NCBI GenBank assembly: GCA_015494585.1
Contig: WGAY01000024.1
Location: forward strand, 1 to 47,226
DNA length: 47,226 bases
DNA from: Candidatus Omnitrophota bacterium
GTDB lineage: Bacteria; Omnitrophota; Gorgyraeia; S143-82
Direction: 5' to 3'
Position 1 is the first letter of the stretch. Each line of letters begins with the position of its first letter. Below are positions 7,550 through 9,201 of the stretch, one piece after another. The position numbers and the translations under genes are program-made. Below the pieces are notes generated by a model. The model had not been told where the DNA came from. It worked only from the letters and a program-made list of their open reading frames with translations, and did not search any database.

Positions 7550-7582
7550 ACTCAAAACATAGGGCCATAGTGCAAAATTCGT

Positions 7583-8710
7583 TTAATCCATAAAAATATC
7601 TAAGTATCTTTTATATACAAACACCCGTCCGTATTTTTTTGTTTCATCCATATGGTCAAGGATGCCAAGCCCAACAAGCCGGTCAATAACCTTTTGCGCT
7701 CCCTGCCGGGTAAATCCTGTCCATTCCCGAATTTTTGCAACATTAACTATGGGTAATTGAAATAATCTTGGCAATATCTTCATTGTATTTTCAGCGGCAA
7801 CCCTCCCAAGAGACTGAATCTTTCGCATATCCTCTTCTCTTAATATCGTAATCTTTTTTACCGTCTCTATAGCCTCATCGGCGGTTTCTATCACTCCATC
7901 CAGGAAAAAATCCAGCCATTTTTCTATTTCTCCTCTATGATATTTGTCCAATCGCTCATAATAAACATCGCGATGTTTTTTAAAATACCAAGATAAAAAT
8001 AACACCGGCTGCTCCAATAATTTTGTTAAATGCAGATAAATAGTAATCAACATCCGGCCTGTTCTGCCATTGCCGTCTAAAAAAGGATGGATAGTCTCAA
8101 ATTGGGCATGGATAATCCCAGCCTTTACAACCGGCAAAAGGCTATCTTCTTGATGCAAAAATTTCTCAAAATCACTAAGCGCCCTTTCCATCTCATAAGG
8201 GGGAGGTGGGACAAAATATGCATTGGAAGGAGAAGTCCCCCCAATCCAGTTTTGGGACCTGCGAAAATTGCCAGGATCAGAAAAGTGCGTTTTCCGTCCG
8301 TCCTTCATTAATTCCCGGTGTATTTCCTTAATCAACCTGAGGCTAAGAGGCATCTCCTGCAAACGCTTAAGCCCATAATTCAATGCCCTGATATAATGCA
8401 AAATATCATTTACGTCATCCGGCATTTTACTCGAAACCTTTGATTCTGCTTCAATGGCGTTAATCATTGTGGCCTGCGTCCCCTCTATCTGGCTGGATGA
8501 GGCCGCATCTTTGCGGATATACATAAAAAGAAAAAAATCCACATCCGGTAATAATTGTGTGATACCATCCAGCTTACCCAACTTAAGTGTTGCAAGATCA
8601 GCCTTTCTAATTAGCTCAGCAGACAAAGGGAATCCTTCTTCTGGCGGGAAAGGGCCAGGGATAAATGCTTGATAGCCTTGAGGTTGGGTTATATATTCTC
8701 CTAATATCAC
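7583..8710 (-). CDS. Fic family protein (probable protein AMPylase) with C-terminal winged helix
   Basis: Fic proteins transfer AMP or related groups to hydroxyl side chains of target proteins. From the GTG at 8710 the protein has 375 aa. Near residue 72 it has SSSQIEGT, the inhibitory-helix motif of self-restrained (class II) Fic proteins. At about 208-219 it has the full active site HPFLDGNGRTGR. A winged-helix-like C-terminus follows at about 316-371 (IREWTGFTRQGAQKVIDRL, then LGILDHM and GRVFVYKRYLDIF). The track's TTG start at 8752 lies inside a palindromic operator-like site; the GTG at 8710 has a good SD (AGAGG, 6 nt spacing). The gene is isolated between two housekeeping units, with a dedicated promoter and three dyads, which suggests acquisition. 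The winged helix may bind the gene's own operators. Confidence 0.9.
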   Translation of the reverse strand: MILGEYITQPQGYQAFIPGPFPPEEGFPLSAELIRKADLATLKLGKLDGITQLLPDVDFFLFMYIRKDAASSSQIEGTQATMINAIEAESKVSSKMPDDVNDILHYIRALNYGLKRLQEMPLSLRLIKEIHRELMKDGRKTHFSDPGNFRRSQNWIGGTSPSNAYFVPPPPYEMERALSDFEKFLHQEDSLLPVVKAGIIHAQFETIHPFLDGNGRTGRMLITIYLHLTKLLEQPVLFLSWYFKKHRDVYYERLDKYHRGEIEKWLDFFLDGVIETADEAIETVKKITILREEDMRKIQSLGRVAAENTMKILPRLFQLPIVNVAKIREWTGFTRQGAQKVIDRLVGLGILDHMDETKKYGRVFVYKRYLDIFMD

Positions 8711-8723
8711 AAAACACCTCTTT

Positions 8724-8751
8724 TGTTTACATCTCTCCAAAGATGCAAACA
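8724..8751. promoter_or_regulatory. Operator-like dyad 1 at fic
   Basis: Half-site TGTTTACATCT, 6-bp centre, then AGATGCAAACA; 28 bp in all with one mismatch per arm. It overlaps the predicted fic transcription start. Its centre is 41 bp from that of dyad 2. Confidence 0.6.
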
Positions 8752-8779
8752 ATATAGCACATTCTGTTTACATTCTCAA
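8751..8779 (-). promoter_or_regulatory. fic promoter
   Basis: On the minus strand, TTGAGA (8774-8779), a 17-bp spacer and TATATT (8751-8756). The -35 hexamer lies inside the middle dyad, and the start point (about 8744) lies inside the proximal dyad, so a protein bound at these sites would block RNA polymerase. Confidence 0.55.
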
Positions 8780-8792
8780 GGGAATGTCAACG
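8765..8792. promoter_or_regulatory. Operator-like dyad 2 at fic
   Basis: Half-site TGTTTACATTC, 6-bp centre, then GAATGTCAACG; 28 bp, slightly degenerate in the right arm. It overlaps the -35 hexamer. Confidence 0.6.
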
Positions 8793-8805
8793 CTTTGCTG
8801 TGTTT

Positions 8806-8833
8806 TGTTTACATTGTATGGCAGATGTAAACA
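8806..8833. promoter_or_regulatory. Operator-like dyad 3 at fic
   Basis: Perfect 9-bp arms TGTTTACAT and ATGTAAACA around a 10-bp centre, 28 bp in all. It lies upstream of the core promoter, and its centre is 41 bp from dyad 2, the same step as between dyads 1 and 2. Confidence 0.6.
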
Positions 8834-8898: not shown

Positions 8899-9114
8899 TA
8901 TCTTTTTCTATTTACCTTATTTTTCTCTAATGTATCAATCTTTCCATCTATATCAAAGAGTGCCTCTGCAATTGCAACCTTTGCCCCTTTGATGCCCGTT
9001 TATTGCCCCTTTTGGAAAGGGTTAGCCTGTGTCTCAGATACGGCAATAGCTTGATTTTTAATGACCTTTTCAGTAATCCGTTCCCCGTCCCTGAGAGTTA
9101 ATAAAAAGTGAGAT
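8898..9114 (-). pseudogene. Remnant ORF with an internal stop, family not recognised
   Basis: One minus-strand frame reads as protein-like text on both sides of a single TAA at 9000-9002. Before it is LLTLRDGERITEKVI...ANPFQKGQ; after it is GAKVAIAEALFDIDGKIDTLE, ending at a TAA at 8898. No start codon or SD fits the left part. The composition looks like the tail of a real protein, such as a restriction-modification or phage gene, but I cannot name it. It shares the gap with the fic insertion, so it may be left over from the same acquired segment. The remaining bases 9115-9201 and 8834-8870 hold nothing I can support. Confidence 0.35.
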
Positions 9115-9201
9115 TAGATTTTCACATCTCATAGAGGTTGCAGTTTGATAACATAAACGTATCCTAACTTATGATTTCTCTCTTATACCCAATAAAACCT
9201 T

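What the first reader, a model, noticed from the sequence alone, without database searches (positions are those of the whole stretch)
8724..8833. Three 28-bp dyads spaced exactly 41 bp apart over the fic promoter
Each dyad is built from TGTTTACAT-type arms and is exactly 28 bp long, and the centres (8737.5, 8778.5, 8819.5) are 41 bp apart twice over, close to four helical turns. They cover the fic -35 box, start point and upstream region. The Fic protein has a C-terminal winged helix, so it may be both AMPylase and repressor of its own gene, with cooperative binding on one DNA face. The arms and spacing are seen; autoregulation is inferred.
Basis: partly seen in the sequence, partly recalled or inferred. 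Interest (0 to 1): 0.72.

Follow-up and report, generated by a model that had tools for sequence, protein, structure and literature searches.

The report
Self-repressing Fic gene's repeated operators
A gene for a probably toxic enzyme of the SoFic phage-defence family carries three evenly spaced binding sites over its promoter, and relatives across bacteria keep the spacing while changing the letters in step with the enzyme's own DNA-reading helix, so the enzyme very probably switches off its own gene.

Summary
Three 28-bp dyads (TGTTTACAT-N10-ATGTAAACA, 0-2 mismatches) lie at 8724-8751, 8765-8792 and 8806-8833, centres 41 bp apart twice; chance gives 0.02 sites per window, and the 1.53-Mb genome has no other copy. 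They sit over the promoter of a class II SoFic-family fic gene with a C-terminal winged helix. Among 78 homologous promoters (26 clusters), 41 bp is the most enriched direct-repeat offset of 98 tested. Inverted and everted axes alternate 20.5 bp apart (half-sites every two helical turns), usually with an axis on the -35 box. In held-out promoters 20.5 bp was again the top axis spacing, though 31 bp beat 41 as direct offset. Half-site letters follow the Fic protein's own recognition helix (partial r about 0.4, p about 0.0005) better than its catalytic core; one His/Pro change goes with a G/A change in the site. Autorepression by a Fic-HTH protein is already known (CccR of Yersinia), so this is a new variant of a known kind. 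Binding and repression are inferred, not tested.

The parts
8724..8751 (.). dyad 1, TGTTTACATC-tctccaaa-GATGCAAACA, over the predicted start point of fic
8765..8792 (.). dyad 2, TGTTTACATT-ctcaaggg-AATGTCAACG, centred on the -35 box
8806..8833 (.). dyad 3, TGTTTACATT-gtatggca-GATGTAAACA, upstream site, perfect match
8742..8774 (.). everted pair: right arm of dyad 1 and left arm of dyad 2, axis 8758, lying on the -10 region
   Evidence: arithmetic; alternating axes 20.5 bp apart are shown family-wide
8774..8779 (-). -35 hexamer TTGAGA
   Evidence: consensus match
8751..8756 (-). -10 hexamer TATATT (extended TG)
   Evidence: consensus match
8715..8721 (-). ribosome-binding site AGAGGTG
   Evidence: sequence
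7583..8710 (-). fic, GTG start, 375 aa, class II SoFic family
8480..8497 (-). inhibitory-helix motif SSQIEG (residues 72-77)
8054..8089 (-). Fic motif HPFLDGNGRTGR (residues 208-219)
7586..7804 (-). C-terminal winged helix (about residues 303-375)
   Evidence: AlphaFold model, mean pLDDT 93; full-length match to 7cb8 and 3eqx
7670..7708 (-). recognition helix (residues 335-347, RQGAQKVIDRLVG)
   Evidence: that it reads the dyads rests on covariation, which is indirect

Best explanation
The three dyads are operators for the fic gene's own product. Fic dimers, through their C-terminal winged helices, bind half-sites laid out on average every 20.5 bp (two helical turns) in alternating orientation on one face of the DNA. 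Bound Fic covers the -35 box, flanks the -10 box and covers the start point, keeps RNA polymerase out, and so keeps a potentially toxic enzyme scarce. Shown by sequence and statistics: the sites, their uniqueness in the genome, the protein family and predicted winged helix, the recurring 41/20.5-bp geometry in homologues, the phase with the promoter, and covariation of site letters with the protein's own recognition helix. Inferred: physical binding, repression, cooperativity, the defence role and the enzymatic activity.
For: Only three sites in the genome, all at this promoter. No regulator gene next door. Winged helix predicted with high confidence. 41 bp is the top direct offset of 98 in 26 clusters: 9 vs 0.38 in shuffles, at most 1 in random segments of the same loci. 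Axes 20.5 bp apart in 11 of 26 clusters vs 0.30; again first in held-out promoters, 8 vs 0.13. A dyad axis within 4 bp of the -35 centre in 21 of 33 scorable promoters, 8 of 10 clusters. Recognition helix predicts half-site letters (partial r 0.39, p 0.0005; one per cluster r 0.41 against 0.05 for the core). H/P in the helix matches G/A in the site. CccR precedent (PMC9755527).
Against: No binding or expression data. The first, unregistered automatic covariation test was null. The registered axes were chosen by hand after the helices had been seen. Among distant pairs (core identity <45%) the helix effect is weak (partial 0.14, p 0.01; 0.10, p 0.14 after removing duplicates) and the rest of the winged helix does better. 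The H/P-G/A match is one evolutionary event. Several homologues show no clear array, and 31 bp is commoner than 41 in the held-out set. CccR's footprint is laid out differently (10-bp arms, 26-bp spacer).
Confidence: 0.85

Rival explanations
1. The dyads are operators for a different regulator encoded elsewhere, and the Fic winged helix serves another purpose such as control of the enzyme.
For: A predicted winged helix need not bind this site; the Sofic CTD has a shown role in toxicity (PMC12249575).
Against: No fourth site in the genome, no neighbouring regulator, and site letters that follow Fic's own recognition helix more than its catalytic core.
Confidence: 0.1
2. Addition to the best explanation: operator binding also tunes the enzyme (DNA acts as a switch or a store for the toxin), beyond lowering transcription.
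For: In CbFic2, DNA binding drives dimerisation and changes AMPylation and deAMPylation (PMC10628234). The array offers six half-sites. No room downstream for an AS1-like antitoxin (gap 7569-7582).
Against: Six half-sites hold only a few molecules; [quoted passage not shown] Sofic dimerisation is needed for toxicity (PMC12249575).
Confidence: 0.15
3. The dyads are not regulatory: leftover repeats of a mobile element or chance.
For: The fic gene is absent from three congeners held and its nearest relative is in another group, so the locus may have moved.
Against: Chance expectation 0.02; no other copies in the genome; geometry recurs in unrelated genomes in phase with the promoter.
Confidence: 0.02

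Closest known systems
CccR of Yersinia pseudotuberculosis (PMC9755527)
   Same: Class II Fic with a C-terminal HTH; represses its own gene through inverted repeats near the -35 and -10 boxes; dimer needed.
   Different: Distant in sequence; it is a secreted effector; footprint AGATAATCAT-N26-ATGATAATCT, a single pair of arms with a long spacer, not three 28-bp dyads at 41-bp period.
SoFic / Sofic anti-phage family (3eqx, 3zcn; EcSofic in PMC12249575)
   Same: Same family by PADLOC model, domains and fold.
   Different: DNA binding by SoFic had not been shown as of PMC10628234; EcSofic has a downstream antitoxin AS1, for which there is no room directly downstream here.
CbFic2 of Coxiella burnetii (8cil, PMC10628234)
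   Same: Fic with a C-terminal winged helix that binds DNA; DNA promotes dimerisation.
   Different: Tested on random DNA sequences, no specific site known; distant in sequence.
Mycobacterium marinum Fic protein 7cb8
   Same: Best full-length fold match (TM 0.83).
   Different: Solved with CDP; operator unknown to me; 26% identity over the fold alignment.

Membership tests
SoFic / class II Fic proteins | Fic motif HPFx[D/E]GNGRxxR | tested here: met
   HPFLDGNGRTGR, residues 208-219
SoFic / class II Fic proteins | Inhibitory motif [S/T]xxxE[G/N] N-terminal to the Fic motif | tested here: met
   SSQIEG, residues 72-77, invariant in alignment A1
SoFic / class II Fic proteins | Match to the SoFic family model and fold over the full length | tested here: met
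   PADLOC SoFic E 5.3e-114; 3eqx TM 0.74-0.75
SoFic / class II Fic proteins | AMP transfer; protection from phage | not testable with these tools
   needs bench work
CccR-type autorepressing Fic | C-terminal HTH domain on a Fic protein | tested here: met
   model; fold matches
CccR-type autorepressing Fic | Inverted repeats over -35/-10 of its own promoter | tested here: met
CccR-type autorepressing Fic | The particular CccR site layout (10-bp arms, 26-bp spacer) | tested here: not met
   here dyads of 28 bp with arms 10 bp and 8-10 bp between, period 41
CccR-type autorepressing Fic | Direct binding and repression | not testable with these tools
   covariation is indirect support only

The most novel reading that the evidence does not exclude
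SoFic-family Fic proteins share a fixed operator scaffold (half-sites every 20.5 bp in alternating orientation, phased on the -35 box) with a rapidly diverging recognition code; a row of dimers assembles along one face of the promoter, and this assembly, rather than an antitoxin, keeps the toxin silent until something such as phage takeover of the DNA breaks it.
Probability: 0.2. Interest if true: 0.78.

Novelty: new variant of a known kind. Interest (0 to 1): 0.58.

Why it matters
How class II Fic toxins without a separate antitoxin are kept quiet is open. A recurring operator ladder would make autorepression a general property of the SoFic defence family rather than a trait of one Yersinia effector.

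Tried and rejected
A global regulator was rejected because the genome holds no further site. The longer TTG-start ORF was rejected on homology and RBS. A first covariation test with automatically picked, unregistered 10-mers gave nothing (partial r 0.01); it mixed registers and orientations and was replaced by the registered version, with the caveats stated. Viral contigs hold no detectable relative. Three other genomes of the genus lack a close fic; in two of them none of the window's neighbouring genes lies near rph within the 14-18 kb fetched, so the arrival of the locus could not be traced by synteny. The stretch 8900-9130 gave no Pfam domain. The control 'any dyad of 24-34 bp' is not decisive by itself: random segments of the same loci gave a mean of 5.9 and a maximum of 14 of 26, against 16 observed; the spacing statistics carry the weight.

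Full report
OBSERVATION. The pattern TGTTTACATN10ATGTAAACA occurs three times in the window, at 8724-8751, 8765-8792 and 8806-8833, with 1, 2 and 0 mismatches; shuffled windows give 0.02 on average. Spacing is 41 and 41. The whole genome, 1.53 Mb, has no fourth copy at up to three mismatches. On the minus strand a sigma-70-like promoter TTGAGA-N17-TATATT (8779-8751, extended TG) leads to an AGAGGTG ribosome site and a GTG start at 8710. Dyad 2 is centred on the -35 box, dyad 1 covers the predicted start point, dyad 3 is upstream.

THE GENE. The 375-aa product has Pfam Fic_N and Fic, the motif HPFLDGNGRTGR and the class II inhibitory motif SSQIEG. It matches the PADLOC SoFic model at 5e-114. 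An AlphaFold model from an alignment of 35 relatives (mean pLDDT 93) shows a C-terminal winged helix whose recognition helix spans residues 335-347 (RQGAQKVIDRLVG). Foldseek places it full-length on the M. marinum Fic protein 7cb8 and on SoFic 3eqx. The neighbours look like housekeeping genes (by my reading of the ORFs); none looks like a regulator, and only 14 bp separate the fic stop from the next gene, so there is no room directly downstream for an AS1-like antitoxin.

HOMOLOGOUS PROMOTERS. I gathered 78 promoters of relatives, falling into 26 clusters at 65% protein identity. They do not share the TGTTTACAT letters, but many groups have dyads of their own: GTTGACATC, TTATTAAAGAA, TAATTGAAGAA, TCGAAAATA, CTTGAGATA, CCAGAACT, CGTAGATAA and others. 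Among all direct-repeat offsets from 12 to 109, 41 bp is the most enriched: 9 of 26 representatives, 0.38 expected in shuffles, and at most 1 of 26 in random segments of the same loci. Inverted repeats are enriched about tenfold at several spans between 24 and 34 (11 of 26 at span 26, 0.73 expected). Distances between dyad axes peak at 20.5 bp (11 of 26 clusters, 36 promoters, 0.30 expected): inverted and everted axes alternate, so half-sites lie on average every 20.5 bp in alternating orientation. In the window the everted axes are 8758 and 8799, midway between the dyads. In 21 of 33 scorable promoters (8 of 10 clusters) a dyad axis falls within 4 bp of the centre of the -35 hexamer.

HELD-OUT TEST. 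33 promoters not used above (plasmids of rhizobia and other Alphaproteobacteria, Thermus, Lachnospira and haloarchaea; further genomes; fetched) were then scored. Axis distance 20.5 was again first (8 vs 0.13 expected). Among direct offsets 31 was first (10 vs 0.50) and 41 second (6 vs 0.52). So 41 bp is not universal: a second layout with three helical turns exists. Some of these promoters are close relatives of each other, so the counts are not all independent.

COVARIATION WITH THE PROTEIN. I put half-sites in register with their inverted axis and compared them with seven residues of the recognition helix, the rest of the winged helix and the catalytic core, with permutation tests. The helix predicts site similarity best (r 0.63; partial 0.39, p 0.0005; with one locus per cluster r 0.41 and partial 0.43, while the core gives 0.05 and -0.17). 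Within one clade, proteins with S-F/Y-H-T have TTGAAG arms and two with S-Y-P-T have TTAAAG; other clades with [ST][FY]PT also have TTAAA, and further members fetched later agreed (L104, L111, L117). On the tree of catalytic parts the His/Pro difference is one change: one event, chemically sensible (histidine can read guanine; my own knowledge) but not replicated. Limits: axes were chosen by hand after I had seen the helices; an unregistered automatic test was null; among distant pairs the helix effect is weak and the rest of the winged helix does better.

MECHANISM. Best reading: Fic dimers occupy the half-sites along one face and block the promoter. 20.5 bp of straight B-DNA is about 69.7 A (20.5 x 3.4); the CccR paper reports 70.2 A between the DNA-reading helices of its dimer (PMC9755527). 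The fit is suggestive only: CccR's own footprint (10-bp arms, 26-bp spacer) is laid out differently and the subfamilies are distant. Whether DNA also tunes enzyme activity, as in CbFic2 (PMC10628234), is open.

KNOWN OR NEW. Autorepression by a Fic-HTH protein is established for CccR. In the library searched I found no description of operators of SoFic-family genes, of the 41/20.5-bp layout, or of the helix-site covariation; most subscription papers are not in that library. I therefore call it a new variant of a known kind.

Noticed in passing
L123, L124, L131, L132, L134, L136, L139, L141, L142, L148 upstream of fic: In these held-out fic promoters the commonest direct-repeat offset is 31 bp (three turns) rather than 41, a second operator layout that may go with a subgroup of the proteins.
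   Followed up: partly
L127 (Lachnospira eligens plasmid), upstream of fic: Dyad axes at about 21.5-bp steps (-129, -107.5, -86), i.e. a 43-bp unit, slightly longer than in the other groups.
   Followed up: no
window 7569-7582: Only 14 bp lie between fic and the next gene downstream, so a downstream antitoxin like EcAS1 (47 aa, PMC12249575) has no room there; how the enzyme is kept inactive besides its inhibitory helix is unknown.
   Followed up: partly
window 8900-9130: Intergenic stretch that reads on the minus strand like broken coding sequence (KVAIAEALFDIDGKIDTLEKNK); no Pfam domain found. Possibly a gene remnant next to fic.
   Followed up: partly
G001-G003 (same genus) versus L069 in G414 (reached through the phylum search around L002): The held congeners lack a close fic, while the nearest relative found (64% identity) lies in a genome reached from another phylum, which suggests horizontal spread.
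   Followed up: partly
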